This document shows, one piece after another, positions 208-14,930 of a DNA stretch of 64,000 nucleotides; position 1 is the stretch's first letter, and every line of letters starts with the position of its first letter. A model generated the notes under the pieces. That model made no database searches. It was not told where the DNA came from and was given only the letters and a program-made list of their open reading frames with translations. The stretch is from Nocardia vinacea. Its GTDB lineage: Bacteria; Actinomycetota; Actinomycetes; Mycobacteriales; Mycobacteriaceae. Both the position numbers and the translations under genes were made by a program. The stretch lies in assembly GCF_035920345.1 (NCBI RefSeq), contig NZ_CP109149.1, forward strand, positions 186,001 through 250,000. The letters are read 5' to 3'.

Positions 208-261
208 TTGCAAACACTGTTAGCAAACAAGTATCGTGCGAATTGCGAACAATGTTCACAA
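208..261 (+). promoter_or_regulatory. Promoter with paired palindromic operators, copy 1
   Basis: Two 19-bp imperfect palindromes lie 35 bp apart at 208-226 and 243-261. Both fit TTGCRAACNNNGTTNRCAA, where the left half is TTGC(A/G)AAC. The first overlaps a -35-like TTGCAA (208-213). An 18-bp spacer leads to a -10-like TATCGT at 232-237, and the second palindrome covers the likely transcription start. A strong AGGAGG follows at 263-268, then a GTG at 274. Near-identical cassettes occur at 5797-5851 (opposite strand) and 12123-12175, the last next to a TetR gene, so TetR binding is inferred. Confidence 0.75.
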
Positions 262-273
262 TAGGAGGTCTTG

Positions 274-479
274 GTGGGCTGTTGTCGACGATCCATGGTC
301 GTCGTGGGAGGAGCCGGTTCCACTCACCTGGCCGTGCCCGCGGAGGCGCTCAGCCGCTGCGTCGTGGTCGATCCGCTCGGGCTGAGTTCGTGCGGAATGT
401 CCGAACTGACTTGGTGGCCACGGAGCCGCAGGTGTTCTGAACCGGGTTCGCCTGGTCCACGACCTCTGGGTGGGCATCG
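274..479 (+). pseudogene. Decayed gene start behind operator copy 1
   Basis: After AGGAGG comes GTG GGC TGT TGT. Compared with the leader of copy 2 (ATG GCT GTC GTC on the minus strand at 5785), this copy has one extra G just after the start codon. Removing it restores a start reading VAVVDD, parallel to MAVVDA in copy 2. As it stands the frame gives a 69-residue Arg/Ser-rich peptide without recognisable features. I read the stretch as the shifted remnant of a gene once driven by the upstream promoter. No other gene is visible before 480. Confidence 0.35.
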
Positions 480-1124
480 ATGAGGTCGTGGATTTCGCGG
501 TGCCGGCTTTCGTTGCCGACGTGGGAGTCGGTGTTGACGGCCCTTGCCGAGTGGCACCCCAGCATGCTCAGCCGACAGATTCCGGCGTGGGTTCGCGCCT
601 CGCGGCGGCGGACCAGGATCGTGTGGTTCATCGTTTTGGCCTTCGTGCTGGTTGTTTGGCCCGGCTTACTCGGCGCGGTCGCCATGGCGCAAATCGATAC
701 TGTGTCGGACGGACCGCCCGGGATCGCAGGAGTGGGCTGGATGAATGGTCTGCCGCCAGAGGAGACCGGTCTGCCGCCAGAGGATCGGGGGGCTCCGCAA
801 GAAGTAACCGGTGAGCAAGGTTTGAGTGACCTCGGTTTGACTCCAGGAGATGTGGACACTGGCTCGTCGGATTCGACAACGCCATCCAACCCACTGGCGC
901 CGCCTCCGCAGACGGGACAACCGGCAGCCGGTTCGGCGCCCCCTCCGAGTCAATCGGTTGTAGCCCCCAGCGGCACGTCCGCAGCGCCCGCGGACAACGG
1001 GATGTCGCCGCGGGCGCCTGGCACTGACGGGGCCGTCGACTGTATCTTCCCGGACGGGGAGACTCAGAAGGTCCCGGTGGTGGCAGCTCTGGGACTCACT
1101 GCTCCCGTATCGATCGACATATAG
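480..1124 (+). CDS. Membrane-anchored or secreted Pro-rich protein
   Basis: The 214-residue product is not of a family I recognise. A basic stretch (ASRRRTR, about residues 40-46) is followed by one hydrophobic segment ending in AVAMAQ, which looks like a signal peptide or anchor. The rest is a low-complexity Pro/Ser/Gly linker that includes a short tandem GLPPE repeat, and two cysteine-free stretches flank a single late Cys. The start is uncertain, since the in-frame ATG at 564 would place the signal nearer the N-terminus. It lies 13 bp upstream of a polytopic membrane gene and probably shares its operon. The next protein has a very similar Arg-rich hydrophobic N-terminus, which suggests a joint envelope apparatus. 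Confidence 0.6.
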   Translation: MRSWISRCRLSLPTWESVLTALAEWHPSMLSRQIPAWVRASRRRTRIVWFIVLAFVLVVWPGLLGAVAMAQIDTVSDGPPGIAGVGWMNGLPPEETGLPPEDRGAPQEVTGEQGLSDLGLTPGDVDTGSSDSTTPSNPLAPPPQTGQPAAGSAPPPSQSVVAPSGTSAAPADNGMSPRAPGTDGAVDCIFPDGETQKVPVVAALGLTAPVSIDI

Positions 1125-1137
1125 GACGCGGGCGGCG

Positions 1138-2481
1138 ATGGCGATCTGGATACGGCGGGTGCGGTTTCGGCGGCCGCCCGCCGTGGTGCCGCCGAGTGGA
1201 TGTGGTCGGAAGCTGGTATGGACGGTGAGAGGGCCTCAGGGCAGGCGTAGGTGCTCGTCGGTATTGGAGCCGGAGGAGTTCTGGAATCCGGAGCGGTGGC
1301 GGCCGGGTGCCGTGGCAGGACGCTGCTTCGTATGGATCAATTCCGGTCGGCGTCGGCGTCGGGTGGTCTGGATCTTGATTGCTGTTGTTGTGTTCCTGGC
1401 TATACCAGGGATCTTTGATGGAATGGCACGCGGGCAGACCGGGACTGGGGGCGGTGGCGGCTCCGGCATCGACGTACTCGATTGGATGGATATCCGGGAC
1501 TCCGAGGGTGTGCCGGCGACGAGTTATCAGATCTCGACAGATGATGGAGGCCTTTTTCACCCGGGCGACACGGTGAGATCTGCCGTGCTCAATTTGGAGG
1601 TCCAGATCTGGCTGTTCCTGCAGATTCCCGCGTGCGAGTTCGTGGGCTTTTCGGCTGGTTACGAATGGCTGGACCCGTTTCATCGTGCTTTGACCGGTGT
1701 TGCGGAGAATCTTACCAGGCAGGTTGCCACACCGCAGGTGCTTTTCACTGCGGCAGCGATAGGCTCTTTAATTGTTGCACTGTTCGTTGTGCGGGGCTAT
1801 TTTGCTCGGGCTACGACGCAGGTGTGTTTCATGCTGTTGGTGGCAGTGTTGGGTCCGGTATTTCTTGCGGAGCCTCTAGCCGAAGTGCTGGCTCCGAACG
1901 GTCTCCTGGCTCAAGGGCGTGATCTCGGTATCTCGGTGGCGGCCGGTCTCAACGGTGATGCTGACCCGAATCCGGCCGATCAGGTGGAAGTCATGCAGGC
2001 TGGTTTGGTCGACAACCTGCTGCGGCATCCGCTGCAGGTATTGAATTTCGGTCACGTCGTCGATCGGTCGCCGGCCTGTCGTGATGCTTGGTCGACCGCG
2101 GTTCTCTCGGGCGATGATTCCGATATCAGGGAAGCAATGCGTGACTGCGGCGACTCGGCCGCTTATGAGAGGGCTTCCGAGCCGACCTGGGGACAGGTGG
2201 GGTCCGGTTTGGTGATCATTTTTCTGTCCCCACTTGCATCGCTGGTATTGATAATGGTCTCATTCATGATTATCCGAGACGGTTGTTATGCTATCTATCA
2301 CGGTTTCATGACAATTTTTGGTTTTGCTGCAGGCGGATTCATTTACGGACCGACGCAAACTTTTCTGATAAGGAATGTGGTGGATGCGTTTATAGCTGCC
2401 GGTCGAATGGCCGCATACACCATATTTCTCGGCGTATACACACTTTTTCTCAACAATATGTTTCTGCAGGCAGGCGGCTAG
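1138..2481 (+). CDS. Polytopic membrane protein, TrbL/VirB6-like
   Basis: The 447-residue protein begins with a basic leader. A signal-like segment follows (RRRRVVWILIA, about residues 65-75), then a Gly-rich linker, and then several hydrophobic stretches: near 200-260 two or three helices, and near 345-445 a C-terminal cluster of about four. A large polar loop with several Cys residues separates the groups. This layout resembles the TrbL/VirB6-like channel proteins of actinobacterial conjugative elements, but the assignment rests on topology only. The stop codon TAG abuts the start of the next gene, so the two are almost certainly co-transcribed. Confidence 0.65.
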   Translation: MAIWIRRVRFRRPPAVVPPSGCGRKLVWTVRGPQGRRRCSSVLEPEEFWNPERWRPGAVAGRCFVWINSGRRRRRVVWILIAVVVFLAIPGIFDGMARGQTGTGGGGGSGIDVLDWMDIRDSEGVPATSYQISTDDGGLFHPGDTVRSAVLNLEVQIWLFLQIPACEFVGFSAGYEWLDPFHRALTGVAENLTRQVATPQVLFTAAAIGSLIVALFVVRGYFARATTQVCFMLLVAVLGPVFLAEPLAEVLAPNGLLAQGRDLGISVAAGLNGDADPNPADQVEVMQAGLVDNLLRHPLQVLNFGHVVDRSPACRDAWSTAVLSGDDSDIREAMRDCGDSAAYERASEPTWGQVGSGLVIIFLSPLASLVLIMVSFMIIRDGCYAIYHGFMTIFGFAAGGFIYGPTQTFLIRNVVDAFIAAGRMAAYTIFLGVYTLFLNNMFLQAGG

Positions 2482-3726
2482 GTGATGGAAATATTGTTCC
2501 TCTGCGCTGTTGTGAACGTGGTCGCAATCTTCCAGGTCCGCAACCTGAGTCGGGCAATGCGAGGTGGTAGTGACTGGATCGCCAACCGGCTCGGGCTCGC
2601 GGCGCAGGGTTCCTCGAGCCCAGGCCATGGTGGCGGAGGCGGTTCTCGCGCCTTGGGGATGGGCGTGGTCGGTGCTGCCCAGTCCATGCCGGCCCATGTA
2701 CTTGCCGGGTTCGCTGCGGCGAGTACAGTCAACAGTTCGCCCATCGCCGAATGGCTTTTCGGCGGGCGAGGTCGGCCGCTCAGTTCCGATGCGAAGCGTA
2801 GGCGCAGGGTGGAGAAGAAGACGTTGTCGGGGTGGGATGAAATAGCGGCTGAGTGGGCCAATTCGTATCAGCCTATTCGGCAGTTCAATAATGCTGGTCT
2901 CCGTGCGTTTCGTGATCCGGATCATTTCGCCGCCAACGTCGGTCGTATTGTCGGGCACCGCAATGTCCGGTCGGTAATCGGTCGAGGCGGTGTAAACTCT
3001 GCGAGAGGAGCATCGGCGATCATCGAAGGCGTGATCTGGGATGGCGCTGGGTCGGCAGAAAGGGCCCGCGGCGCCATGTTGGCTGCAGGCTACACCGATG
3101 AAAGGGTAATAGAAGCGGCCATCGCGGCTCGCAGCCATGTCGGCGGACGTGTCAAGTCTGAGCCATGGCAGAACGATGAATTGTCGATGTACATGGCTGC
3201 GTTGCGGAACTTTCAAGACGATCGGACTGCGGCGAACCTCGCGGAGGTCGAGACCTTCGCACTCAGATATCGCAATACGCACCGCGGGGGTGTGTCTTTC
3301 GATGATCCGGAACATGAGCGGCTTGCTCGGCATTACTTTGAGAACCCCGATCCTGATTCATGGCGGCAACTCCGAGATATAGCGGATGGCTTTGACCCTT
3401 CAGGGGAGCGAAAACCCGAAAATGTTGTGCCAGCGAATGCCCGTATACCGATCAATTTGGGTACCGGACTTGTGATGGTGAACAGAGAAGAGGCACAGCG
3501 CATTACAAGCTGGGTCGGCAACGAGCACCCACGGCAGATTGTGGAGTCGCTCGACAGGGTCATGGACTTGCCCGAGGGCGAGTTGCATTCAGACCGAGCC
3601 GACCGGCTGATCGCAGACCTACGCTGGCATAGCGTCCGTGCGAGCAACGACGACGTCAGGGCTGCCGGGCTGCACAGGAGCCCGTGGAGCCCGCCGCCCC
3701 CGCGGCCGTCCAGCCGGACACCGTGA
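2482..3726 (+). CDS. Hypothetical protein of a putative transfer operon
   Basis: The 414-residue protein starts with GTG directly after the TAG of the preceding gene (an in-frame ATG follows at 2485). The first 15 residues are hydrophobic (FLCAVVNVVAIF) and may insert in the membrane. A Gly/Ser-rich stretch follows near residue 50, and the remainder is polar and mostly helical with no motif I can name. Tight coupling to the TrbL-like gene suggests it belongs to the same apparatus. The last 22 residues are Pro/Arg-rich. A change to the third frame near 3660 would instead give an acidic tail ending at 3761, so a late frameshift is possible. Confidence 0.6.
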   Translation: MMEILFLCAVVNVVAIFQVRNLSRAMRGGSDWIANRLGLAAQGSSSPGHGGGGGSRALGMGVVGAAQSMPAHVLAGFAAASTVNSSPIAEWLFGGRGRPLSSDAKRRRRVEKKTLSGWDEIAAEWANSYQPIRQFNNAGLRAFRDPDHFAANVGRIVGHRNVRSVIGRGGVNSARGASAIIEGVIWDGAGSAERARGAMLAAGYTDERVIEAAIAARSHVGGRVKSEPWQNDELSMYMAALRNFQDDRTAANLAEVETFALRYRNTHRGGVSFDDPEHERLARHYFENPDPDSWRQLRDIADGFDPSGERKPENVVPANARIPINLGTGLVMVNREEAQRITSWVGNEHPRQIVESLDRVMDLPEGELHSDRADRLIADLRWHSVRASNDDVRAAGLHRSPWSPPPPRPSSRTP

Positions 3727-3893
3727 CAGCAGAAGACTCGAATGCCGAAGACGGGCTGTAGCCGTCGTCAATCAATCCCATCACCTAATCCGAAAATGAT
3801 GGTGACCCCAGCCTGTCGCTGGATCTCTCGGGTATGTTTGCGCGTGATGGCTCACTGCGGCAAACGCTGGTTGGCGGGAGCTCGCCCAACGGT

Positions 3894-4730
3894 CTAATGC
3901 GGTCTCGCAGTGGACGATTGACGGTCGCGAGGGTGTACTTGTCGCACAATGGTGGCGATGAAATGTCGGCTTATAGTTCGGGGGGCGTAGCGGAAGGCGA
4001 CGGTGGTGGCGCGATTGATGGCACCCGGAACTATGATCGCTCGTCCGCGCCGGTAGCCGCGCCAGCCGATTCGAGCGACAGTGTCGGCGCTCATCCAGGA
4101 CATGCGGGGCAGGCCGCTCGCATCGACGCCCGCCGCATCCTGTAATTCGGTCCGGGTGTACCCGGGACAGAGGCAGCTCACCCGGACACCGAAGGGTTTG
4201 ACTTCGTGATGGACCGACTCGCTGAGGGTGATCAGCGCCGCCTTGCTGGCGCTGTATGCGGCCAGACCTGGGCTTGCTTGTAGTCCGGCGGTGGAAGCGA
4301 TGTTGAGCACGCCGCCGCTGCCCTGCTGCACCAGCTGCGGCAGTAGGGCACGCATCAGGCGCATCGGGACCGCGGTATGTAACGCCAATTGTGCTACCGC
4401 CCGGTCGATTTCACTGTTGGCGAAGAAGGTGTAGTCGGTGACGCCAGCATTGTTGACCAGGTGCTGGATGGGCTCGGCCCGACTTCGCAACCGATCCTCC
4501 ACCCGCCGCACATCACTGTCGTTCTGCAGATCGGCGACGAGGACCTCGATGTTCGTTCCCGTGTCCTGCAGCTGTTCGGCCAGCTCGTCGAGCCGGTCGG
4601 CGCGCCGGGCGACCACGATCAGGTCGTGGCCGCTGCCGGCGAGCATCCGGGCGAACGCCGACCCGATTCCGCTGCTGGCTCCCGTAATCAGGACCCCGCC
4701 CCGCCGTGTTGTTTCCACGTGCACCACCAC
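3894..4730 (-). CDS. Short-chain dehydrogenase/reductase
   Basis: This is a classical SDR of about 278 residues, an NAD(P)-dependent oxidoreductase. The cofactor loop TGASSGIG lies near the N-terminus, the NNAG motif follows, and the catalytic Ser and YSASK are intact. I chose the GTG at 4730 because AGAGGA sits 9 bp upstream. Two further GTG codons follow directly, so the exact start is soft. It lies 40 bp downstream of the methyltransferase gene and is probably transcribed with it from the operator-controlled promoter at 5797-5851. The substrate is unknown. The pairing with an O-methyltransferase suggests modification of a small hydroxylated or acyl compound. Confidence 0.9.
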   Translation of the reverse strand: MVVHVETTRRGGVLITGASSGIGSAFARMLAGSGHDLIVVARRADRLDELAEQLQDTGTNIEVLVADLQNDSDVRRVEDRLRSRAEPIQHLVNNAGVTDYTFFANSEIDRAVAQLALHTAVPMRLMRALLPQLVQQGSGGVLNIASTAGLQASPGLAAYSASKAALITLSESVHHEVKPFGVRVSCLCPGYTRTELQDAAGVDASGLPRMSWMSADTVARIGWRGYRRGRAIIVPGAINRATTVAFRYAPRTISRHFIATIVRQVHPRDRQSSTARPH

Positions 4731-4770
4731 TAGCGACAGTCCTCTCTGTGCCGTAGTCGCGAATCGCCGG

Positions 4771-5595
4771 TCAGAAGCTCCAGCGGCCGATCGTGGCAAG
4801 CCGGCGCAACCCTGGAATGTACCGGGTCATCGCGAATTGCAGTCGTACACTGCGGGACAGTCCGGACTTCTGCCCCTCAGGCGTCCGGGGGTCGAACCAG
4901 TCGGAGGCGGCGAGGCACGCGGTCGTGCGATAGCCGAGTTGATCGAGTTCGGTTGGGTCGTCGATGCCCCAGTGCAATGTCGAACCGGTGTTGCGGGTGA
5001 TCGGTGTGGCCTTCTGCATCTTGACGCCGAGCTTGCTGAGCATGTCGGCGATCAGCTCGCCCGATGGGAACTTGCGGGCGAGCTGTCGCAGTAGTTCACC
5101 GCCTGCTTCCGGCTTCAGGTACACGAGCAGCCCTTCGGCCAGGAGGAGTGCGGGGCGATCGGAGGGGATGCGGTCGAGCCAGGCGAGGTCGGTGATCGGT
5201 GTGCCGATGAGGTGGTAGTTGGCGCGCTGCGGATAGATACGGGTACGCAGGTCGATCACCTCGGGATAGTCGATGTCGAACCATTGCACCGATGGTGGCG
5301 GGTCGAGCCGGAAGACTCGGCTGTCCATACCGCAGCCCAGGTGCAGCACGATAGCCTCGGTGTGGTCGTGCAGGTACTGCGCGGCCCAGTCGTCGATGAC
5401 CTTCGCGCGGGCCGCGATTCCCTCAGCGGAAGCCGCTGTGACACCGAGTCTTTGGAAGTCGTAGTCGATGTGCTCGAGAGCGTCCTCAGCTGCTTGATCG
5501 CCAAGGATCGGGTTCGCCAACCGGTTGTCGAGCACTTTGCTGTAGAGCGTCGCGAGCATGGTCGCCTTTTCCTCGGTGAAAGTGACCTTTTCCAT
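4771..5595 (-). CDS. SAM-dependent methyltransferase, LCM/TcmP type
   Basis: The 274-residue protein has the hallmarks of the leucine-carboxymethyltransferase-like class I methyltransferases common in Nocardia and Streptomyces. These are a SAM-binding LHLGCGMDSR motif near residue 85, an acidic VQWFDIDYPEVI strand end, and AEGLLVYL further on. Such enzymes O-methylate small molecules, carboxylates or polyketides, and the substrate here cannot be read from the sequence. The start at 5595 is supported by GGAGG 8 bp upstream. The gene sits 200 bp downstream of operator cassette copy 2 and upstream of an SDR, so TetR-controlled expression of a two-gene operon is likely. Confidence 0.9.
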   Translation of the reverse strand: MEKVTFTEEKATMLATLYSKVLDNRLANPILGDQAAEDALEHIDYDFQRLGVTAASAEGIAARAKVIDDWAAQYLHDHTEAIVLHLGCGMDSRVFRLDPPPSVQWFDIDYPEVIDLRTRIYPQRANYHLIGTPITDLAWLDRIPSDRPALLLAEGLLVYLKPEAGGELLRQLARKFPSGELIADMLSKLGVKMQKATPITRNTGSTLHWGIDDPTELDQLGYRTTACLAASDWFDPRTPEGQKSGLSRSVRLQFAMTRYIPGLRRLATIGRWSF

Positions 5596-5650
5596 CTGAA
5601 CCCTCCTCGAAACATCGGAACGGACCCGAACTTGTTGTCGGACAAGCCCT

Positions 5651-5785
5651 TCAGCACAGCAACCAAATTCCGTCAGGCACTCGACCGTCCTGACGTGATC
5701 TCGATGGCTGGACAGTGCAGCCGCCTCGGCGGACCGGATGTGGTCTCACCACACAACTCGATGCGTCGGCGTCGACGACAGCCAT
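5651..5785 (-). CDS. Short ORF or decayed gene start behind operator copy 2
   Basis: GGAGG is followed 5 bp later by an ATG that opens a 44-codon frame beginning MAVVDADASS and ending 56 bp before the methyltransferase start. The Shine-Dalgarno, spacing and MAVVD start are nearly the same as in operator copy 1, so the two derive from one ancestral gene 5' end. It could now serve as a translated leader for the methyltransferase operon or be a plain remnant. No family is recognisable. Confidence 0.35.
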   Translation of the reverse strand: MAVVDADASSCVVRPHPVRRGGCTVQPSRSRQDGRVPDGIWLLC

Positions 5786-5796
5786 TGAGACCTCCA

Positions 5797-5851
5797 TTGT
5801 GAACAATGTTCGCAATTCCGCACGATACTTGTTTGTTAACGACGTTCGCAA
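5797..5851 (-). promoter_or_regulatory. Promoter with paired palindromic operators, copy 2
   Basis: This minus-strand copy contains palindromes at 5833-5851 (TTGCGAACGTCGTTAACAA read on the minus strand) and 5797-5815 (TTGCGAACATTGTTCACAA), 36 bp apart. The -35-like TTGCGA lies at 5851-5846 and the -10-like TATCGT at 5827-5822. Some 45 of about 50 bases match copy 1, including the bases between the palindromes. It points towards the methyltransferase-SDR operon. Confidence 0.8.
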
Positions 5852-6038
5852 GTTGTCGGTGGTGCTTGGTCTCCGCTCCCGCAGCGCAGTCACAGGCCCT
5901 GGATCAGCTAAACGGCTTGCGGGGTTTGGTCGACCACAGAACCACCCGGCGACCGGTGTGCGCCGGACCGGCGAGCGGGTGCTGACTCGCTATCGAGAGA
6001 GCGGTGGTCGAGCAGACGGATCAGCGCGCCTTTCCTGG

Positions 6039-6066
6039 TTTACAATACGGATCAGATCTGTATTAT
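6039..6066 (+). promoter_or_regulatory. Promoter and operator of the downstream TetR gene
   Basis: TTTACA (6039-6044) and TATTAT (6061-6066) form a near-consensus promoter with a 16-bp spacer. The spacer is filled by a 21-bp palindrome at 6044-6064, AATACGGATC-A-GATCTGTATT, with 9 of 10 paired positions matching. Initiation about 7-8 bp after the -10 box would fall on the ATG at 6074, so the transcript would be leaderless. The operator placement is that expected for autorepression by the TetR protein. Confidence 0.75.
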
Positions 6067-6073
6067 AAGTGCC

Positions 6074-6709
6074 ATGAGTGCCGATGATCGTGCTCCTGGC
6101 CGTCCTCGGAGCAGGGAGGCCGATGCCGCTATCTTGAACGCCGCGCTGGAGCTGTTGATCGAACGCGGCGCCGAGGCGACCAGCATCGAGCTGGTTGCCC
6201 GGCGCGCCGGAGTCACCCGGGCAACTGTGTACCGGCGGTTCCCGGACAAGACTCGGCTGTTGATCGCGGCGATTGAGACAGCCTACAGCGACCCTCCGCG
6301 CACGCCGGAGATCCGCGACATCGAACACTTTTTGGCCGGTTCTGCATACGTCCTCGCCAACGCGCGCCTCCGCCGCCTCTTGCGGCGCCTCTACGACGCG
6401 ATCGATGACTATCCCGAGCTCGCTCGTGCCTACCACGACCTGTTCGGCCAGCATCGTGACCGGGCGCGCAAGGACGTGTTCGAGCGGGCCCGTGATCGCG
6501 GGCAGCTACCCGCGGACACTGACCCTGACGTGCTGCTGGACCTGCTCACCGGAGCGGTCTGGCAACACTTGGCCACCCGGCCGGACACCAGCACGGCCAA
6601 TGAAATCGAGCAGTACCTGCGCGCTGTGCTCCACCAGGCCGGCTACCGGCCCGACGCACATCAGCAACAACCTGTCGAGGACGGCAAACAGAGCCGGCCG
6701 ACTCAATGA
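6074..6709 (+). CDS. TetR/AcrR family transcriptional regulator
   Basis: The 211-residue repressor has an N-terminal helix-turn-helix (about residues 13-58: AILNAALELL, GVTRATVYRRFPDK) and an all-helical ligand domain of the C-terminal type often seen with YLRAVL near the end. It most likely binds the 21-bp palindrome in its own promoter. The start at 6074 is fixed by the promoter, and no Shine-Dalgarno is visible, in keeping with a leaderless message. The gene 13 bp downstream (6723) begins a small membrane protein later split by a transposon, so that protein was probably its co-transcribed target. Confidence 0.92.
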   Translation: MSADDRAPGRPRSREADAAILNAALELLIERGAEATSIELVARRAGVTRATVYRRFPDKTRLLIAAIETAYSDPPRTPEIRDIEHFLAGSAYVLANARLRRLLRRLYDAIDDYPELARAYHDLFGQHRDRARKDVFERARDRGQLPADTDPDVLLDLLTGAVWQHLATRPDTSTANEIEQYLRAVLHQAGYRPDAHQQQPVEDGKQSRPTQ

Positions 6710-6722
6710 GAGGAGCAGCAAT

Positions 6723-6812
6723 ATGTCAACCGCCAGCGTCGAGGCGCACGAACGTACTCGGGCGTTCGCCCGCGTCATCGGTCCCTATATCGGCACGTGG
6801 GACTGGATCTGA
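6723..6812 (+). pseudogene. 5' fragment of a split small membrane protein gene
   Basis: GAGAGGAG lies 7 bp before the ATG. The frame reads MSTASVEAHERTRAFARVIG and then PYIGT before running into foreign sequence and a TGA at 6810-6812. The 3' part of the same kind of gene resumes at about 10750 with AYIATFTTVYAIR. The sequence CCTATATCG occurs at both break points (6784 and 10750 regions). The whole gene would encode a protein of about 150 residues with four hydrophobic helices. It sits directly behind the TetR gene, as a target gene would. Confidence 0.75.
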
Positions 6813-6887
6813 GAAATCTGGCGCTTAGTGACCACCAGGGAACTCGACGTCGAACCACATGATGCGTTTCGGCCCTCGCGCGGTCGC

Positions 6888-7802
6888 TCAGGTGTCGATC
6901 TCGCCGACCCAGGTGTACTTCAGGAGCGCGGTGGGCAGGTACTCGGATTCGATGTCGATGGGGAAGCCGGCGTCGTGGGCAAGGCACGCGATGGCGAGCA
7001 GGTCGAGGGCGACGAGACCTCCCGAGCTGATGGCCCGATCCTCGGTCTCGGTCCAGTACTCCTTGTGCCACCGCAGCGCATCGGCCAGCGCGCTGTTGAA
7101 TTCCTCATGGTCCTGCTGGAGATAGCGATAGAAGAGAATGATCGGCGGATAGATGACCTTCAACAGGGCCTCCTTATCCTCCTTGCCGACAACCGGAGCC
7201 GCCTCCTCGTTGGGGCCGTCGAACCGAGCAGTTTGCGGGTCGGTGCCGTCGACTGCGGCGACCAGCTTGTCGCACATGTCTGGCCGGCCGAGCCAGAAGC
7301 TCTGCAGGGTCTCCACCCAGGAGTAGATGTACTCGAGAAGCACCGCACCCGACCCCAGCGACTCGCGCAACAGGGAGACAGGTACCTGCGCCAACTTCTC
7401 CAGGCGCTCGGTCTCCCGACAGATCAACGCGAGGTAGAAGGAGGTGACCCACGCCTCCGCGTTCACACAGAACTCTGGGCCGATCGCGGGCAGGGATCGC
7501 TCCTGCTCCTTGATCCGGACCGTTACAGTGCTGTCTTCGGCCGCGGTGGCCGCGGCGAACAGCGCGGAGCCGGTCTGCATGGCCGTGACCCACGCTTCCC
7601 ACGTCTCGAACTTCACCGCTTCCGGGTCCGTTGCACATCGCGACTGCGCCAGGGTCAGAGTCATGTTCAGGGCCTGGGCTCGTCTGACGCCCTTCGGCTT
7701 GTCGAGCCCGGCGATGACCCAGCTCGCGTTCTCCTTGAGCCCTGCTAGGCTCTCAGCCTCGTTGTCTATGGCACAGTCGTGGCGAGGAATGCTCGTGACC
7801 AC
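6888..7802 (-). CDS. Imm49 family immunity protein
   Basis: The 304-residue protein matches the actinobacterial Imm49 pattern as I know it. It opens IPRHD, has TWEAWVTAMQ.GSALF in the first third, FYLALICRE and YIYSWVETLQ.FW in the middle, and IYPPIILFYRYL and LRWHKEYW in the last third, with WVGE at the end. Imm49 proteins protect against polymorphic toxins, usually from a neighbouring gene. No toxin lies beside this one, because the upstream DNA is an IS5 remnant, so it is an orphan carried on the transposon. The GTG start at 7802 has AGGAG 6 bp upstream. The gene appears intact while all its neighbours are broken. Confidence 0.85.
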   Translation of the reverse strand: MVTSIPRHDCAIDNEAESLAGLKENASWVIAGLDKPKGVRRAQALNMTLTLAQSRCATDPEAVKFETWEAWVTAMQTGSALFAAATAAEDSTVTVRIKEQERSLPAIGPEFCVNAEAWVTSFYLALICRETERLEKLAQVPVSLLRESLGSGAVLLEYIYSWVETLQSFWLGRPDMCDKLVAAVDGTDPQTARFDGPNEEAAPVVGKEDKEALLKVIYPPIILFYRYLQQDHEEFNSALADALRWHKEYWTETEDRAISSGGLVALDLLAIACLAHDAGFPIDIESEYLPTALLKYTWVGEIDT

Positions 7803-7824
7803 GTGCTCTCCTGGTGGATCTCAA

Positions 7825-8150
7825 AGTTGCTCCAGCGAAGCACCAGCATAGGCACCACATCAGGCGCGACACGAGCGGGCAGTTCGGCCCGTCATCATGC
7901 GCCAGTAGCGGGACCGCGCCATCGCGGTCCTGTGTGCTGGCAGCGGTGACCACGACCGTCAGCAGCAGACCCATGGTGTCGGTGGCGATATGGCGTTTGC
8001 GGCCGCCGACTTTCTCAGCCGCCCCATCTCGTCCTCCCCGGTCGTTGCAGCCCGGCCCGCAGTACAACCGCATGATCGGACTGTCTTCGTCAGGGATGTT
8101 GAACGCCGGCCGGTGCTCCGGGGGCGTCGGGCGCAGATCGCAGAGCGCAT
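7825..8150 (-). pseudogene. IS5-family transposase remnant
   Basis: On the minus strand a frame reads GGRKRHIATDTMGLLLTVVV followed by TAASTQDRDGA, the highly conserved stretch around the second catalytic Asp of IS5-group DDE transposases. The sequence upstream and downstream is out of frame and shortened, with neither the first Asp region nor the C-terminal Glu region intact. It ends just before the Imm49 gene, whose own promoter may have come from this element. Confidence 0.75.
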
Positions 8151-8229
8151 CCGATGCGATTCAGCGGCGGGTCTCGACTGGTAGGGGCCAGTATTCGAGT
8201 GTTCTGTATTCCTGTCTCAGTGACGGTGA

Positions 8230-8947
8230 TCAGCGACTGTGATCGCCGGGTGCGTAGCTTTTCCAGTTTCCCCCGGAGTCGGTCCAGATACGGTTCATGT
8301 GGTGGGCGGAGAAGCCGAGGGCTTCGGCGATCACAGGAGCGGGGGCCTGCAGGACGAGCTGGCGCAGGGTTGCTGCCCGGGTGGCTCCGGTCGGCAGGCC
8401 GAGATCATCGCGAAGATGTTCGAGCATGGTGCTGAAGTGCAGGGGCTGTCCTGCTCGCCGCCCTGGGAACAGCCAGCGGCTGCCCGCGTTGACGGTGTTC
8501 ATGTTCTGGCGGTTGCCAACAAGTTTGAGCAGCAGCCCGCCGAGGGGCTCGGGAACGGGCGAGAGTGGCGTGCCGAGCCGGATGAGGACCTGATCACCAT
8601 GGGTGATGACGTCCTCGACGGTGAGGCGGACGAGACGGGTGGCGGGTTGACCGTAGAGCAGCATCAGCGCGGCCGCGACCCGTGACCGGATCGGTGGCCG
8701 ATCGTCAGTGAGCACCCGACGTAACAGGGCGAGCCGTCGCGACTGGGTGATGGGCTGACCGGCGCCGGTGCGGAGGGTTGGCAGGATCAGTTTCGGCATG
8801 TGACCAGCGTTCATTGCCCAGGTCAAGAAGGGGCGCAACGCCTTCTTGCAGTGATCGAGCGCGTCAGCATGCCAGGCATCGAAATCGGCTTGCGTGCATC
8901 CAGCGAGCCCGCAATCGCGCTGGTCGAGCCAGGACAGGAACCGTTCG
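8230..8947 (-). pseudogene. 5'-truncated site-specific integrase
   Basis: The frame is open from the junction with the Tn3 transposase remnant near 8947 (SWLDQRDCGLAGCTQADFDAW) through FLTWAMNAG and on to the stop at 8230. It corresponds to the C-terminal two thirds of the long actinobacterial tyrosine-recombinase-like integrases with RLALLRRVLTDD and ALMLLYGQPATRLVRLT motifs. An ATG at 8838 could give a 202-residue product, but the N-terminal DNA-binding part is missing. The join to the Tn3 fragment shows that one mobile element inserted into, or recombined with, another. Confidence 0.7.
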
Positions 8948-10660
8948 GCCTGGTCCCTCCCCCAGATACGCGGCCAGCTCCCGGTAAGCGCCGTCGAGGC
9001 TTTGGGCCAGCTCGCCCAGCATCGTGCGTGGGTTGCCCGGCAGGCCGAGCGCGTTCATGCCCCGGTCGCGGGCTTCTTCCCACGCCATACCGGACAGCAG
9101 GTGCGCGCGGGGGTCACGCCATTTGGAGGAGTGCTCGGCGAAGATGTTGCGGTGCTTGAGATGCCGATGAAACTGCTCTAGCAGGCACAGGGTGCAGGCG
9201 CGGCGGTCAACGGTCTGTTCCGGCCGCTCGGGTAGGTACACGAGGCGCTGCCAGCCACCTCCGACCAGGGCGTGATCCACGCGACGGGCATCGAGCCACC
9301 GCGCCGGCAACCCGCCCCGGCCACTTCGTTGCGGAGAGATCATATCCGCCAGCGCAGCAACAGCTTTCAACACCGGCGCGGCATCGGCCGTGGCACCGAA
9401 GTCGATGTTGCGCATCATCGCGGGCAGGAACCCCCGCACCGTGGCGTACCGGTTGGCCAGCTCTCGAGCCGCTCCGAATCGCACTCCGGATCGGCTTGGG
9501 GCACCAGCTCATCGATCGCCGCGAGCGCGGCCCGCAGCTCGGCCCTGGACACGGTGTTCTCGATCAGATCCCACACCAATTCCAGCGACAACCCCGGTTC
9601 GCTCTCGCTCATCTCCAACAGCACTCGCACCGCCTGGGCCAGCTTGCCGGCGTTGCGGCTCACCCGCGGGTAGCGCTTGAGTTTCTCGTCCTTGGACTGG
9701 CGTTCGGCCTTGGCCATCAAGTCGGTGACCATCAGCCGGTCGAACAACTCCAGCACGTCATCGATCGCCTTGGCGCGCAAAGTGAACACCGTCGCGGTAA
9801 GCAGCGCCAGCAGCCGCTCCCGCTGGGATTTCATCCGCCGCAGATGCGCAGTCTTGCCGGTCAACCCGTGCGTGGCCAGGGCGATCACCCGGCGCGCCGG
9901 CACCGCCGTGACGTCCACCGACGCCGGGACGACCGCGTTCACACCCCGCCCCCGCGCCAATGCGTTCTGCATGCCCATCGGCGACGGGGTGAACGCGCCC
10001 CTACGCAACTGCTCCAGCTCGACATACCGGCGGCGGTTCTCCTCCCGGGTGTCCAGCAGCCCCAGCAGCTGCCCAGCCTCCCCGCCGGTCAGCTGGCTGA
10101 CCAGCTGCGCCCATAGTCGCTGGTCGGCGTCCTGTTTGCCGTCGGTGATCAGCCGTTCCAGGGTGGTGATGCCCGGTAGCAGAGCATTGTGTTCTCGCAG
10201 CCAGCCCACCGCGCCGGAGAGCGAGGCCTTCGGTCCGTCGCCGGTCATCCACGCTTGATCAGTGATCCACGCCAGCAGTTCGGCCTCGACCTGCGCGAAC
10301 GAGATCAACCCTTCCTTGCGCTGGATCTCCCACGCATGTTCGAACCTGGTCTTCTCCCGGTCGGTGTAGGACTTCACGCACGACGGATCCGCGATCTCGA
10401 GCTGCTCAGCCAGATAATCGACCAACTCACCCGGAACATCGAGCGGATCCGGCAGAAACACCCCAAGTAGCGGACCGTGACCAGCTGCAAAGCGAATCCA
10501 AGCCGATTCGAATCCCGTCGCCGGACCGCGATCAGCTCCCGATCGGTGTCATTGGACCGTTCCCGGTTCAGCTCGACTCGCGACAGCACACCGAACTGGC
10601 CGTACCCGACCCCGCCCTCATCACCCACAAACCGACATGCAACCACCACACGCCCACCAG
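8948..10660 (-). pseudogene. Tn3-family transposase, frameshifted and truncated
   Basis: Reading leftwards, 10650-10465 encodes YGQFGVLSRVEL and NRLGFALQLVTVRYLG, the N-terminal DUF4158 region. A frame change near 10460 leads into FLPDPLDVPGELVDYLAEQL and a long central part (10461-9480). A second frame change near 9480 leads into RYATVRGFLPAMMRNIDFGA and the C-terminal region. The homology then ends near 8950, before the usual C-terminus, where integrase sequence takes over. Full-length relatives are about 1000 residues, so this copy is inactive. Its 5' end faces the right inverted repeat near 10740, the usual arrangement. Confidence 0.85.
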
Positions 10661-10748
10661 CATCCGCCAATCCAGCGAATCAACCTCCACAGCAAACGTT
10701 TCGGTCACAACACTCGCTAACGCCAGTTTCCGGTCAACTGGACCCCAC

Positions 10749-11140
10749 ATGCCTATATCGCAACCTTCACGACCGTCTACGCGATCCGTCTGCCCAGCCT
10801 GGACATCGACCTGTTCGCCGAGCCCGTCCATGTGTGGTTTGTCGGATCCCTGATGCTCTGCGGAGGGCTTGTCATCATCGGCGGTCACCGCAGCTGGCGC
10901 GGACCGCTCGCGGTTACCGTGTCGCTGTTCGGCTGGTTCGTCGCGCTACGGGGATTCCTCTTGATCGCCAACCCGGAAGCAGCCGAGTCGGGCGTCGACA
11001 GCACCATGCAATCACCGACGGCAACGCTCGTGGCCCGCATCTTTTTCGGCGTCTTGGCCGTGATCGGCCTGCTGCTGACCTACGCCGGCTGGTTCACCAG
11101 GCCAGTCACCGCGCAGCAATCAGCGCCCACGACTATGTGA
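10749..11140 (+). pseudogene. 3' fragment of the split small membrane protein gene
   Basis: From CCTATATCG onward the frame reads AYIATFTTVYAIRLPSLDID and continues through GGLVIIGGHRSWRG, FGWFVALRGFLL and GVLAVIGLLLTYAGW to TGA at 1138-1140 of the 11-kb block. Hydrophobic segments suggest three helices, with the first supplied by the piece at 6723. An internal ATG at 10832 could still be used for a 102-residue product. The intact family has the HxxWRG and ALRG motifs seen here, and its function is unknown to me. Confidence 0.75.
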
Positions 11141-11381
11141 GTGCCACCCACAACTCGCCATCGCCCACCGCTTCGTTGGCGACCGATCCCGGCATGCGTC
11201 GGTGCTCCACCAGGCCGGGTACCGGCCCGCACATTTGCGCAAAGTATCGGTGCCTACCGCGAATGTCGCGACGGCCAGAAAGCAATTCGCTTGGCAGAAG
11301 CGTCCGCGAATTCTCCTCTTGCACACGAGCCATGGTGGCGCCCAGTGCGATCAACCACCCGCGGGTGATCACAAGCGTGCC

Positions 11382-12107
11382 CTAGCCCTCGCTCGGCCGA
11401 CCACTGCCCGGGATGATGCCGAACAGTAGTGCTTCGACTCCCGCCCGGAACACCGCATCATTGTCGACTGGTGCAGTCGCGGACTCGGTAGTGGTTAGCA
11501 GCGCGGTCAGATGCGGGTAGTCACCATGGGCCAGCATTGTCGGAAGGTGGTCGGACTCACCCATGGTGGAGGCGGAAAACCCCGCTGCTTCCAGCCCGGC
11601 GAAGGTACGTACCCAACCCGACAACAGGCTGATACCCATCATGGTCGCGTTCGCGTCCAGTCCCGCTTGGGCCAAAGCGCCGGCCATGTGGTCGAGGTAT
11701 CGCATCGAATTCCGACCGAGGTTCAACGAAACGGCCTCGCCTAACCCCTCCCTCAACCATGGGTGCCGTCGATGCAACGCCTGCGCCTGCTCCAGCATCG
11801 CGAAGACGTCGGTGCGTACGTTCCCGATCAGGGGCGGGTAGTCGTATTCCGCGGCGACGTGGTTCACCATGAGCGCGAGTAGGTCGTTTTTGCCGTCGAC
11901 GTACCGATAGAGCGAGGCTGCGGCGGTCCCGAGGTCCTCCGCAATGCGACGCATCGATAGCGCGGGCAGCCCTTCCGCGTCGGCGATACGGACACACACG
12001 TCCGCGAGCTGGTCCAGGGTGTAGGTGCGACGCGGCCCCGGTTTGGGATCGGCGCCTCGCAACCACAACGAGGTCGAGGAAGCCGTGGGTGTCATGCCAG
12101 TCAGCAT
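11382..12107 (-). CDS. TetR/AcrR family regulator, likely repressor of the paired operators
   Basis: The 241-residue protein has a TetR helix-turn-helix at about residues 32-75 (GLPALSMRRIAEDLGTAAAS, then LYRYVDGKNDLLALM). Its large C-terminal helical domain is of the type that follows LYRYV.GK..L. The start codon is only 15 bp from the palindrome at 12123-12141, so any promoter for this gene overlaps that operator. The divergent gene is the MmpL transporter at 12535. The same double palindrome stands before the methyltransferase-SDR operon at 5.8 kb, so this protein is the best candidate for controlling all three sites. Binding itself is inferred. Confidence 0.88.
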   Translation of the reverse strand: MLTGMTPTASSTSLWLRGADPKPGPRRTYTLDQLADVCVRIADAEGLPALSMRRIAEDLGTAAASLYRYVDGKNDLLALMVNHVAAEYDYPPLIGNVRTDVFAMLEQAQALHRRHPWLREGLGEAVSLNLGRNSMRYLDHMAGALAQAGLDANATMMGISLLSGWVRTFAGLEAAGFSASTMGESDHLPTMLAHGDYPHLTALLTTTESATAPVDNDAVFRAGVEALLFGIIPGSGRPSEG

Positions 12108-12122
12108 GCCACTACCCGAGCG

Positions 12123-12175
12123 TTGCGAACCCCGTTAGCAAACATCTATCCTGCAACTGCGAACGTTGTTCACAA
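12123..12175 (+). promoter_or_regulatory. Promoter with paired palindromic operators, copy 3
   Basis: Palindromes at 12123-12141 (TTGCGAACCCCGTTAGCAA) and 12157-12175 (CTGCGAACGTTGTTCACAA) lie 34 bp apart. A -35-like TTGCGA (12123-12128) and a -10-like TATCCT (12147-12152) have an 18-bp spacer. The first palindrome covers the -35 box and the second the probable start point, exactly as in copies 1 and 2. It stands between the TetR gene (leftward) and MmpL (rightward). Confidence 0.82.
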
Positions 12176-12534
12176 TTAACGAGAGGTTTGGTGGCCGTGA
12201 TCAAAGCCGCTGGCACTTACCAGGCGATATAGCTCAGGCGCTCTATCGGCCGGAGTGGATTGCGGATGCTCGTCGGTCATGTCCATGCCCTGTGCGGACC
12301 GAACAGTTCGAGCGAGACTCCACGGTGCGAATGCTGGCAACATTCCTGCGTCCGATCCGTCGGCCGCGGCCCGGATCGGCAACCTGCGGGTGGTGCCCAA
12401 CTTGCCTTCTGATCGCGAAATCCCTTCGGTGCGGGCCGTCAGCCTCGAGTTCGATGCCACCGAACCCGAGTTCGCGAGACCACGAAATCTGAATTACCCC
12501 AGCTCATTACGAATCCGGAAAGGATTTTGCGCAG
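12176..12534 (+). pseudogene. Decayed coding stretch between operator and mmpL
   Basis: GAGAGG is followed by GTG GCC GTG ATC, a frame that stops after 13 residues (MAVIKAAGTYQAI). Further on, a frame from about 12320 to 12480 reads DPSAAARIGNLRVVPNLPSD and VRAVSLEFDATEPEF with GC-rich third positions, which looks like true coding sequence that has lost its start. I cannot name the family. The MmpL ribosome site is GAAAGGA at about 12518. The stretch may be the remains of a gene that once followed the promoter. Confidence 0.35.
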
Positions 12535-14751
12535 ATGTTCGCACGACTTGGGGCCGTGGTGGTCCACAATCCGTGGAAGGTGATCGGCATGTGGATGCTG
12601 CTCGCCATCGCGGTGGTGATCTCGGCACCGGAACTCAAATCAACGACCGACCAATCCGCTTTTCTGCCTTCGCATTACGAGTCGATCCAGGCGTTGGAGA
12701 TGCAGCAGGAGGCATTTTCGCAGAGCTCAGCGCCTGCGGCGATCATTGTGTTCGCCCGGCAAGACGGGGCGCCGCTGACCGAGGGTGATTCGGCGTCGGT
12801 GGTATCGATCGGCACCGGGCTGCTGGGTGCGCGGATCACCGACGTCACCGCGATCCAGCCGGTGCCGCCGTCAGAGAACCGGCTGATCCAGATCTTTGCG
12901 GTGCAGATGACCAAGGTGACCAGTCCGAGTGACGCTACCCAACGCGATGCGGTCAAGTCGCTGCGCGCGGAACTGAAGCAATGCGTGGCGGGTACAGAGC
13001 TGAAGGCCGGCATCACCGGTCAGGCGGCTCAGGCGCTGGACCAGCAGGAATCCAGCGAAAAGGGCATGGCGATCATCGGCGTTGCTACCATCGTGCTGAT
13101 TCTGGTGCTGCTGATGGTCATCTTCCGCAGCGCGGTGATCGCGTTGCTGCCGATCGTCGTGATCGGCGCGATCTCCAGTATGGTCGATGGGTTGATCGCC
13201 ATGGTGGCCAAGGCATTCGACTTGCAGATCGACGCGTCGATCAGCGCTATCCTGCTGGTCGTGCTGTTCGGCGTCGGCACCGATTACATCCTGTTTTTGA
13301 TGTTCCGCTACCGCGAGCGGCTGCGTGCGGGCGAAGATCCGAAGATCGCCATGGTCAGTGCCGTCACCCGCGTCGGTGCGGCCATCACCTCCGCGGCGGG
13401 CGCGGTGATCATCGCGTTCATGGCACTGGTTTTGTCCACGCTCGGCATGTTCCGCGCGCTGGGGCCGGCATTGGCGATCGCGGTGGCCGTGGCGCTGGTG
13501 GCTGGGCTGACGCTGGTGCCAGCGGTAGTTTCGCTGCTGGGCACCAAGGTGTTCTGGCCGTCCAAGGCTTGGCGGACCGAGCCAAGAGGTGTGCGTTTCG
13601 CCGCCGGCAACTCGCTCGGTCGGCGGCCCGGTGTCTTCGCGGTGATCTCCGGTGGGGTGCTGGTCGCGCTAGGGGTGTTCGCGTTCGGTTTCCACCCGAC
13701 CTTCGACCTCAGCTCCGGCTCGACCTCGCAGGCATCCGAATCCATGGTCTACAGCAAGGAATTGGTGAAGGGTATGCCCGCGGGGACGGCGCAGCCTTCG
13801 GATGTCCTGCTGCGTTCCGGCGGTAGCGAGTTGACCGATGAACAGCTCAACGCCTACCGAAACGCGCTGGCCGCGGTGCCCGGCGTCGGCCAGGTGGCCG
13901 AACCGAAGCGGTCCGCGGACAACACGATCGCCGATTTCGTGGTGACACTGACCGACGTGCCGGAATCGGACGCCGCTCTGGACACTGTCAAAGGGCCGCT
14001 GCGGGACGTCGCGCACTCGGCCGCACCCGTCGGCACCACTGCGGCGGTAGGCGGGATGACCTCGGTCTTCGTCGACTTCCAGGATGCGATGGCCCGCGAC
14101 TACGCGATCGTGTTCCCGGTGGCGGCGGTCCTGATCATGATCGTGCTCGGGTTGCTGCTGCGCAGCCTGGTCGCGCCGTGGTACCTGATGGCGTCGGTAT
14201 TCCTCGGGTTCGCCGCCACGCTCGGCGCCGCGGTACTGGTGTTCCAGCACATCCAAGGAGAATCCGGCCTGATGTTTACGCTGCCGGTGATCATGTATCT
14301 GTTCGTGGTCGCGCTCGGCACCGACTACAACATCCTCATGGTCGCCCGGCTGCGGGAGGAAGCACACGCGGGCAATGAACCGAAACAAGCCGCCGCACTA
14401 GCAGTCCGGCACACCGGACCCACCATCGCGGCGGCCGGCGTGATCCTGGCGGGCACGTTCGCGTCGATGATGCTCTCGGGCAACAACGCGCTCGCACAGA
14501 TGGGCTTCGCCATCTCGGTTGGTATCGGAATCGCCGCGTTCGTCATGGCGATGTTCTTCACACCCGCACTCACGGCGATGATCGGGCATAAAGCATGGTG
14601 GCCCGGGCACGGTGGCCATAGGGTCGATGGCGCCGGATCGGGTGTGCCGCGGTGGGGCAAGTCCGATGATTTCGCCTACTTCCACGACGCCGAGCAAACC
14701 CTGGCCGCGAAGAGCGAGTCCCGCCGGGAGTGGTCGAACACCGGCGATTGA
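12535..14751 (+). CDS. MmpL-type RND transporter
   Basis: The 738-residue inner-membrane protein has the MMPL layout. There is one helix near the N-terminus (VIGMWMLLAIAVVI), a periplasmic domain, five helices around residues 180-335, a second helix-domain-helix repeat starting near 370, and a final five-helix bundle. The conserved GVGTDYILFL and ALGTDYNILMVARLREE motifs carry the Asp-Tyr pairs of the proton relay. MmpL proteins export lipids or small molecules with the proton gradient, and the cargo here is unknown. It is longer-spaced from its promoter than usual. Control by the divergent TetR through copy 3 is likely, and a strong terminator follows. Confidence 0.93.
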   Translation: MFARLGAVVVHNPWKVIGMWMLLAIAVVISAPELKSTTDQSAFLPSHYESIQALEMQQEAFSQSSAPAAIIVFARQDGAPLTEGDSASVVSIGTGLLGARITDVTAIQPVPPSENRLIQIFAVQMTKVTSPSDATQRDAVKSLRAELKQCVAGTELKAGITGQAAQALDQQESSEKGMAIIGVATIVLILVLLMVIFRSAVIALLPIVVIGAISSMVDGLIAMVAKAFDLQIDASISAILLVVLFGVGTDYILFLMFRYRERLRAGEDPKIAMVSAVTRVGAAITSAAGAVIIAFMALVLSTLGMFRALGPALAIAVAVALVAGLTLVPAVVSLLGTKVFWPSKAWRTEPRGVRFAAGNSLGRRPGVFAVISGGVLVALGVFAFGFHPTFDLSSGSTSQASESMVYSKELVKGMPAGTAQPSDVLLRSGGSELTDEQLNAYRNALAAVPGVGQVAEPKRSADNTIADFVVTLTDVPESDAALDTVKGPLRDVAHSAAPVGTTAAVGGMTSVFVDFQDAMARDYAIVFPVAAVLIMIVLGLLLRSLVAPWYLMASVFLGFAATLGAAVLVFQHIQGESGLMFTLPVIMYLFVVALGTDYNILMVARLREEAHAGNEPKQAAALAVRHTGPTIAAAGVILAGTFASMMLSGNNALAQMGFAISVGIGIAAFVMAMFFTPALTAMIGHKAWWPGHGGHRVDGAGSGVPRWGKSDDFAYFHDAEQTLAAKSESRREWSNTGD

Positions 14752-14770
14752 CGCGGGCAAGTTGAGCGAG

Positions 14771-14809
14771 GGCTGTGCACTCGGAACCTATCGAGCGCAC
14801 AGCCTTTTT
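14771..14809 (+). terminator. Rho-independent terminator after mmpL
   Basis: GGCTGTGC-A-CTCG pairs with CGAG-C-GCACAGCC around an 8-base loop (14771-14804) and is followed by five T. It lies 20 bp after the mmpL stop. Confidence 0.85.
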
Positions 14810-14930
14810 CGCAGCGGAATACTGGCCGCGTAGGCATGATTCGCGTCAGCTTCGCCGGGGTCTGGGCGGCGGCGTCGGCTGTGCAGAAACGCCCGGCTGG
14901 TCACCACGAACTCACGAATGGAACTCACGA

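What the first reader, a model, noticed from the sequence alone, without database searches (positions are those of the whole stretch)
208..12175. One promoter with paired palindromic operators present three times around a TetR gene
Cassettes at 208-261 (+), 5797-5851 (-) and 12123-12175 (+) each carry two 19-bp palindromes of the form TTGCRAACNNNGTTNRCAA at 34-36 bp spacing. A -35-like box sits inside the first and a TATC-type -10 box between them. Copies 1 and 2 are almost identical even outside the palindromes, and copy 3 is diverged but keeps the geometry. Copy 3 separates a TetR gene from an MmpL transporter, and copy 2 drives an LCM methyltransferase plus SDR. This looks like a small regulon linking synthesis or modification of a compound to its export, built by spread of one promoter. 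Seen: the repeats and layout. Inferred: that the TetR at 11382 binds all three.
Basis: partly seen in the sequence, partly recalled or inferred. Interest (0 to 1): 0.8.

Follow-up and report, generated by a model that had tools for sequence, protein, structure and literature searches.

The report
Copied pump-repressor promoter heads several genes
In this Nocardia genome, the switch that normally controls one export pump has been copied about nine times into one small stretch of the chromosome, where it now sits in front of a different pump and in front of modifying enzymes, which suggests a control circuit built by copying a promoter.

Summary
The three cassettes lie exactly where stated and are three of nine in the genome, all inside 89 kb of 10.36 Mb. 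In relatives the same cassette is the divergent promoter between this TetR gene and a DrrAB-type ABC exporter: 15 of 15 other Nocardia loci, 20 of 21 named loci. Distant TetR homologues also carry such sites upstream (50 of 58). TetR is therefore the likely binder; binding is not shown. The geometry resembles a SimR/ActR-type autoregulated pump repressor. Here drrAB is lost but for short stubs. An intact MmpL gene follows one cassette, an LCM methyltransferase plus SDR another; the 19 other loci fetched for LCM and the 19 for MmpL lack it. A decayed and an intact block repeat LCM, TetR and MmpL in the same order. "Small regulon built by promoter copying" is largely supported; "synthesis linked to export" is inference, and cassette 208 may be a relic. 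New variant of a known kind.

The parts
208..261 (+). Cassette c7: operator-like palindromes 208-226 and 243-261; putative -35 TTGCAA 208-213, -10 TATCGT 232-237
   Evidence: promoter boxes read by eye
480..3726 (+). Three open frames (480-1124, 1138-2481, 2482-3726), the first 219 bp after cassette c7; the middle one is 49% identical over 86% to a Nocardia plasmid protein
   Evidence: the fetched plasmid stretch L208 has no site with up to 4 mismatches; two terminator-like matches at 610-629 and 1025-1038
3894..4799 (-). SDR oxidoreductase; true start probably about 27 codons inside the listed frame
   Evidence: 95% and 75% homologues in Nocardia sp. CA-084685 and 2YAB30
4771..5595 (-). LCM-type class I SAM O-methyltransferase, overlapping the SDR frame
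   Evidence: PF04072; 89% homologue in Nocardia sp. 2YAB30
5797..5851 (-). Cassette c8: palindromes 5833-5851 (over the -35, 5851-5846) and 5797-5815; -10 TATCGT 5827-5822; leader of about 200 nt to the methyltransferase
   Evidence: promoter boxes read by eye
6041..6067 (.). Different palindrome TACAATACGGATCAGATCTGTATTATA before the TetR_C_11 gene 6074-6709; read as that regulator's own operator, not part of this set
   Evidence: sequence; promoter-like match 6039-6066; Pfam; function inferred
11382..12107 (-). TetR-family repressor of the SimR/ActR-like group (TetR_N + TetR_C_1), proposed binder of the cassettes
12123..12175 (+). Cassette c9, divergent promoter between TetR and MmpL: palindromes 12123-12141 and 12157-12175; -35 TTGCGA 12123-12128, -10 TATCCT 12147-12152
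   Evidence: promoter boxes read by eye
12191..12405 (+). Decayed 5' stub of drrA, frameshifted
   Evidence: tblastn, DrrA residues 24-68 in two frames; DNA homology to the N. araoensis locus up to +255 from the cassette start
12462..14820 (+). MmpL block; CDS 12535-14751; 85-89% DNA identity to six of seven fetched other Nocardia (79% to the seventh), homology starting at most 73 bp before the ATG

Best explanation
The cassette is the autoregulated divergent promoter of a SimR/ActR-like TetR repressor. One dimer binds each palindrome; the first palindrome covers the -35 box and the second the predicted start site, so bound repressor shuts both directions until a small molecule releases it. 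The ancestral module is TetR <- cassette -> DrrA-DrrB ABC exporter. In this Nocardia that module was copied within an 89-kb stretch that holds integrase genes, and the drrAB genes were lost. An MmpL pump took the exporter's place behind one cassette, and an LCM methyltransferase plus SDR stands behind another. The open TetR genes (197385, and an 80% copy at 115615) are thereby expected to co-repress MmpL and the LCM-SDR pair and to release them together on the same ligand. Shown: the repeats, their restriction to 89 kb, their co-conservation with TetR in relatives, the absence of drrAB, and the paralogous blocks. Inferred: binding, repression, ligand, the order of events, and that LCM-SDR and MmpL act on one compound.
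For: Nine cassettes in 89 kb; 16 of 38 genome sites there against 0.19 expected. TetR orthologues (E <= 1e-30) in 15 of 149 other genus genomes; in 15 of 15 fetched loci exactly one pair, right before TetR, with DrrA and DrrB on the other side. Named loci with 45% identity or more: 20 of 21 carry a pair, 21 of 21 have DrrA-DrrB divergent (partly the same genomes). L073 DrrA passes the TIGR01188 drrA cut-off. Loose-pair scan of 150 genus genomes: 15 besides this one hit, one place each, 13 at the TetR orthologue, 2 beside another TetR_C_1 regulator and an MFS pump; control 0. Distant TetR homologues (29-39%): 50 of 58 have a site within -200..+10 of the match start, with 3 sites in 678 kb elsewhere. 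Best DrrB and DrrA matches left in this genome: 36% and 49%. Fetched relatives of LCM and MmpL lack the cassette: 0 of 19 and 0 of 19. Three segments (LCM start with cassette; TetR with cassette; MmpL) repeat in the same order and orientation at 108.8-115.5 and 190.8-200.7 kb. In Nocardia sp. 2YAB30 the TetR (83%) and LCM (89%) are both listed with one contig of 41,452 bases. SimR is the closest solved structure, E 2.3e-21; a review says SimR binds two separate operators between simR and simX (PMC5812520, passages).
Against: No binding or expression data. Behind the six cassettes outside the window (c1-c6) I saw mainly truncated, frameshifted or unidentified frames, so much of the set may be decay. 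MmpL starts 360 bp after its cassette, beyond a frameshifted stub, and keeps up to 73 bp of its own upstream DNA, which may hold its own promoter. One search also shows matches between the two blocks that are out of order. In 2YAB30 the SDR is in a cluster of two contigs, the longest 205,126 bases, so its linkage to TetR there is not shown. The distant homologues were picked partly by a recognition-helix word and are among the best 80 of 108 loci, which favours a shared operator. The consensus scan found no sigma-70-like match at the cassettes, and two terminator-like matches lie after cassette 208.
Confidence: 0.72

Rival explanations
1. The extra cassettes are only fossils of segmental duplication. 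TetR controls its own promoter and perhaps MmpL; cassettes 208 and 5797 lie by chance before unrelated genes and do nothing.
For: The region is full of broken copies: TetR pieces, a truncated and frameshifted MmpL, LCM cut to 39 residues beside an integrase-core gene, an internally deleted LCM piece. One cassette has lost its second palindrome. Cassette 208 is followed by a decayed frame before the open frame at 480.
Against: In eight pairs, 14 of 16 arm positions of each palindrome are the same in 7 or 8 of 8 copies while the three central bases vary, and cassettes 208, 5797 and 12123 have 1-2 mismatches per palindrome. LCM and TetR each keep a cassette in both blocks and are apparently linked in 2YAB30.
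Confidence: 0.3
2. The cassette is a small mobile element (MITE-like) that spreads by itself and happens to carry a promoter.
For: Imperfect inverted-repeat shape; homology of c1, c7 and c8 to the relatives' module is confined to about -14..+60.
Against: The same sequence is a one-place TetR/drrAB promoter in other Nocardia genomes. Copies c3 and c9 carry the adjoining TetR and drrA ends and c4 the TetR end, as segmental copies would. Homology edges differ from copy to copy. Target-site duplications were not tested.
Confidence: 0.05
3. Another regulator, not this TetR, binds the palindromes.
For: Binding was not tested; one search lists 24 TetR-like places at E <= 0.001, 6 of them this TetR and its copies or pieces.
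Against: The sites follow this TetR subfamily across genera and down to 29% identity. Of nine own-genome paralogue loci scanned (9 of the 18 other places), none has a pair and two have one weak single site (L034, L038).
Confidence: 0.07

Closest known systems
SimR/SimX (simocyclinone exporter and its TetR repressor, Streptomyces)
   Same: Closest solved homologue by sequence (2y2z, with 2y30, 2y31, 3zql; E 2.3e-21). [quoted passage not shown]
   Different: SimX is an MFS pump. The review describes one intergenic region; here nine cassettes, several away from the repressor gene, and a swapped pump. Ligand unknown here.
ActR/actAB (actinorhodin export)
   Same: Second closest solved relative (2opt, E 6e-14). 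ActR binds its divergent intergenic region with three complexes and represses it 23-fold (PMC3511530, passages). The window MmpL's best NCBIfam model is TIGR00833 'actII', below its cut-off.
   Different: Operator sequence given for ActR (CCACCGTT repeats, PMC3511530) is not this one. In the same table SCO7222 has three TGGAACG/CGTTCCA palindromes, nearer in style but not the same.
TetR-DrrAB modules of Nocardia and Rhodococcus (e.g. N. araoensis, N. alba, R. aetherivorans loci)
   Same: Orthologous TetR (54-65% for the named full-length loci; 62% over residues 1-136 for N. araoensis) and the same cassette.
   Different: In the genus scan one place per genome with the loose pattern; in the fetched loci drrAB is present. 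Here drrAB is lost and cassettes have multiplied.
MAB_4384 / MmpS5-MmpL5 (Mycobacterium abscessus)
   Same: TetR repressor divergent to an MmpL pump, two dimers on the operator in the authors' model (PMC5895659, passages).
   Different: One 27-bp palindromic region with a 1-nt spacer; no cassette copies described in the passages read.

Membership tests
TetR-family repressor (TetR_N + TetR_C_1) | N-terminal TetR HTH and TetR_C_1 ligand domain above Pfam cut-offs | tested here: met
   TetR_N 30.0 vs 24; TetR_C_1 41.8 vs 21
SimR/ActR-like exporter repressor | Sequence relation to SimR and ActR beyond the HTH | tested here: met
   Match residues 24-231 to 2y2z and 29-239 to 2opt
SimR/ActR-like exporter repressor | Divergent exporter gene with two operator-like sites between | tested here: met
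   Relatives: DrrAB divergent, pair between. In the window the exporter side is MmpL behind a drrA stub
SimR/ActR-like exporter repressor | Operator binding released by the exported compound | not testable with these tools
   Needs EMSA and a ligand screen
DrrAB exporter operon | DrrA ATPase above the TIGR01188 cut-off plus ABC-2 permease | tested here: met
   In relative L073: DrrA 318.3 vs 312.45; permease PF01061 79.3 vs 26.9, though below the NCBIfam DrrB cut-offs
DrrAB exporter operon | Intact in this genome | tested here: not met
   Only short stubs after cassettes; best DrrB 36%, DrrA 49% elsewhere
MITE-like mobile element | Fixed ends shared by all copies | tested here: not met
   Homology edges differ by copy
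MITE-like mobile element | Target-site duplications | not tested
   -
Co-regulated regulon | Common regulator controls all cassette genes | not testable with these tools
   Needs footprint and transcript data

The most novel reading that the evidence does not exclude
A regulon caught being built by copying: an exporter's dual-operator promoter was duplicated with its repressor in an integrase-bearing region, the exporter was discarded, and the copied promoters took over a different pump (MmpL) and a tailoring pair (LCM methyltransferase, SDR). The result is a ligand-switched modify-and-export circuit with two closely related repressors sharing one operator set.
Probability: 0.35. Interest if true: 0.65.

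Novelty: new variant of a known kind. Interest (0 to 1): 0.47.

Why it matters
How a repressor with one target gains new ones can involve new sites arising by point change or copying of an existing promoter (general knowledge, no call). Here the likely ancestral one-cassette state is visible in relatives, and intact and decayed copies remain in one genome, so promoter copying as a route to new regulon members becomes testable. The operator found across this TetR subgroup (TTGCGAAC-N3-GTTCGCAA type) also lets targets of uncharacterised SimR/ActR-like repressors be predicted.

Tried and rejected
MmpL as the original partner of the cassette: rejected, because the 19 other MmpL loci fetched (82 genomes had a match) lack it and MmpL homology starts at most 73 bp before its ATG.

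LCM methyltransferase as the original partner: rejected for the same reason, 0 of 19 loci fetched (57 genomes had a match).

TetR at 6074 as the binder: set aside, because a different palindrome stands before it.

Plasmid-type genes as the source: the nearest plasmid relative stretch (L208) has no site with up to 4 mismatches; plasmid records hold only TetR matches below 60% identity.

Strict paired pattern over genus (2 of 148 genomes) and family (4 of 301) was too narrow: it missed relatives with GTTCCCAA ends. The looser pattern replaced it; that one still finds only 5 of the 9 cassettes here and misses two TetR-holding genomes (G111, G021) that one search covers. (397 genomes of the order) hit 5: this one, two already known, G175 (TetR 61% with DrrA/DrrB) and G681.

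Dropped before counts: L100 (C-terminal TetR piece of N. araoensis) from the distant group; L074 (other contig end of the same gene, no site) from the 15 loci.

Paper searches. None of the titles or abstract starts listed describes these cassettes; the search for the two literal octamers returned 709 papers, 15 listed, none about this regulator by title. Passages only were read in PMC4155686, PMC5895659, PMC10663510, PMC5812520 and PMC3511530. Subscription journals are mostly not covered, so absence from print is not claimed. The original SimR and ActR operator papers were not read.
Full report
What is there. The window is bases 186,001-250,000 of a single 10.36-Mb contig. The genus is Nocardia: several 'same genus' contigs have the lengths of named Nocardia contigs, and the closest named TetR proteins are from Nocardia. 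The window, however, cuts the set: a genome-wide search with up to 2 mismatches gives 38 distinct sites, 16 of them between 109,102 and 198,175. With one looser site added (123,245) these form nine cassettes: c1 109,102 (-), c2 111,358 (-), c3 113,103 (+), c4 115,582 (-, second palindrome destroyed), c5 123,245 (-), c6 183,563 (-), c7 186,208 (+, window 208), c8 191,797 (-, window 5797) and c9 198,123 (+, window 12123). Outside this stretch the nearest two sites are 39 kb apart, so there are no further pairs at that threshold.

Anatomy. First palindrome TTGCGAACNNNGTTAGCAA, spacer of 13-17 bp, second palindrome TTGCGAACNNNGTTCACAA. Across eight pairs, 14 of 16 arm positions in each palindrome are the same in 7 or 8 copies, while the three central bases vary. 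The first six bases of the first palindrome can serve as -35 and TATCGT/TATCCT as -10, with 18 bp between, which puts the start site in the second palindrome; this is read by eye, and the sigma-70 scan did not list it. A ribosome-binding-like GGAGG follows within a few bases in c1, c3, c4, c5, c7 and c8, six of nine.

Where it comes from. The 11382 TetR has orthologues (E <= 1e-30) in 15 of 149 other genus genomes. In all 15 fetched loci (L059-L073) one paired cassette lies directly before TetR, and on the other side two genes run away from it: a DrrA-type ATPase and a DrrB-type permease (families of one pair). A named set agrees: of 21 loci with 45% identity or more (Nocardia, Rhodococcus, Millisia), 20 have the pair, the Millisia locus has a single site, and 21 of 21 have DrrA-DrrB divergent (several of these are the same genomes as before). 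Turned round, a scan of 150 genus genomes for a loose pair hits 15 besides this one, one place each; 13 are these TetR-drrAB loci, and the other two (G022, G040) stand between a different TetR_C_1 regulator and an MFS pump. A third such case, G681, turned up among 397 genomes of the order (the pump there was recognised by its sequence only). Reversed-pattern controls were 0. Among distant TetR homologues (29-39% identity, 58 loci, one C-terminal fragment dropped), 50 have at least one site with up to 3 mismatches within -200..+10 of the match start, 70 sites in 12 kb, against 3 sites in 678 kb elsewhere. These loci are among the best 80 of 108 and were chosen partly by a conserved recognition-helix word, so the figure applies to that subgroup.

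What happened here. Around c9 and c3 the DNA matches the N. araoensis module on both sides of the cassette: TetR and the first 200 or so bases of drrA. c4 matches on the TetR side and, compared with c3, about 100 bases past the cassette start. c5 keeps the cassette and a short piece of drrA. The rest of drrAB is gone; nothing closer than 36% (DrrB) or 49% (DrrA) is left in the genome. In c9 a 2.36-kb MmpL block (12462-14820) follows the drrA stub; it is 85-89% identical to MmpL genes of six of seven fetched other Nocardia (79% to the seventh), and the own genome has another MmpL at 78%. c1, c7 and c8 match the relatives' module only over about -14..+60, and c2 and c6 over about -7..+55. Behind c8 stands an LCM methyltransferase overlapping an SDR; the 19 other LCM loci and 19 other MmpL loci fetched, with 1.5 kb on each side, have no cassette. 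Blocks at 108.8-115.5 kb and 190.8-200.7 kb repeat the order LCM <- cassette, TetR <- cassette -> MmpL in the same orientation, with other matches out of order. In the first block LCM is cut to 39 residues beside an integrase-core gene, TetR is broken, MmpL is truncated and frameshifted, and a second open TetR (115,615, 80% identical, identical recognition helix) lies at its end. I infer that TetR and LCM were linked before the blocks diverged. The link also appears in Nocardia sp. 2YAB30, where both proteins are listed with one contig of 41,452 bases; that this is the same contig is inferred from its length, and the 2YAB30 SDR is not shown to be on it. Nocardia sp. CA-084685 has the TetR (84%), the MmpL-TetR read-through frame also seen here, and the SDR (95%).

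How it most likely works. The nearest solved proteins are SimR and ActR. SimR binds two separate operators between simR and simX and is released by the antibiotic (PMC5812520, passages). In a study of nine Streptomyces TetR-family regulators, the five with under 200 bp to the divergent neighbour repressed it (PMC3511530, passages). By analogy, TetR dimers on both palindromes block both promoters. With the cassette copied, the same repressors should also hold down LCM-SDR and MmpL and free them together. This last step is inference. Weak points: MmpL begins 360 bp behind the cassette; c7 is followed by a decayed frame and two terminator-like matches in the plasmid-type genes; behind c1-c6 mainly broken or unidentified frames were seen.

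Verdict.

Noticed in passing
window 32901-53414: A lipid-handling run: fatty-acid desaturase/ferredoxin-reductase fusion, aldehyde dehydrogenase, GMC oxidoreductase, Mce/MlaD proteins (four scanned), AMP-binding ligase and a WS/DGAT.
   Followed up: partly
window 6888-7802 (-): An Imm49 immunity protein gene (PF15575, E 2e-66); a toxin partner was not looked for.
   Followed up: no
G000:C1:115060-116322 (L014 15060-16322): MmpL fragment read through in frame into a TetR gene; a protein of the same build is deposited from Nocardia sp. CA-084685 as an MMPL transporter (P0007).
   Followed up: partly
window 435-453: A weak single palindrome (3 mismatches) shortly after cassette 208, not counted as a cassette.
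   Followed up: no
L015 4422-8161: Two adjacent, overlapping frames with phage-integrase domains (948 and 416 aa) near cassette c5, a possible agent of the rearrangements.
   Followed up: no
G022 (L230), G040 (L231), G681 (L234): Other TetR-type regulators with almost the same paired operators before MFS-type pumps: the same operator style with a second pump type.
   Followed up: partly
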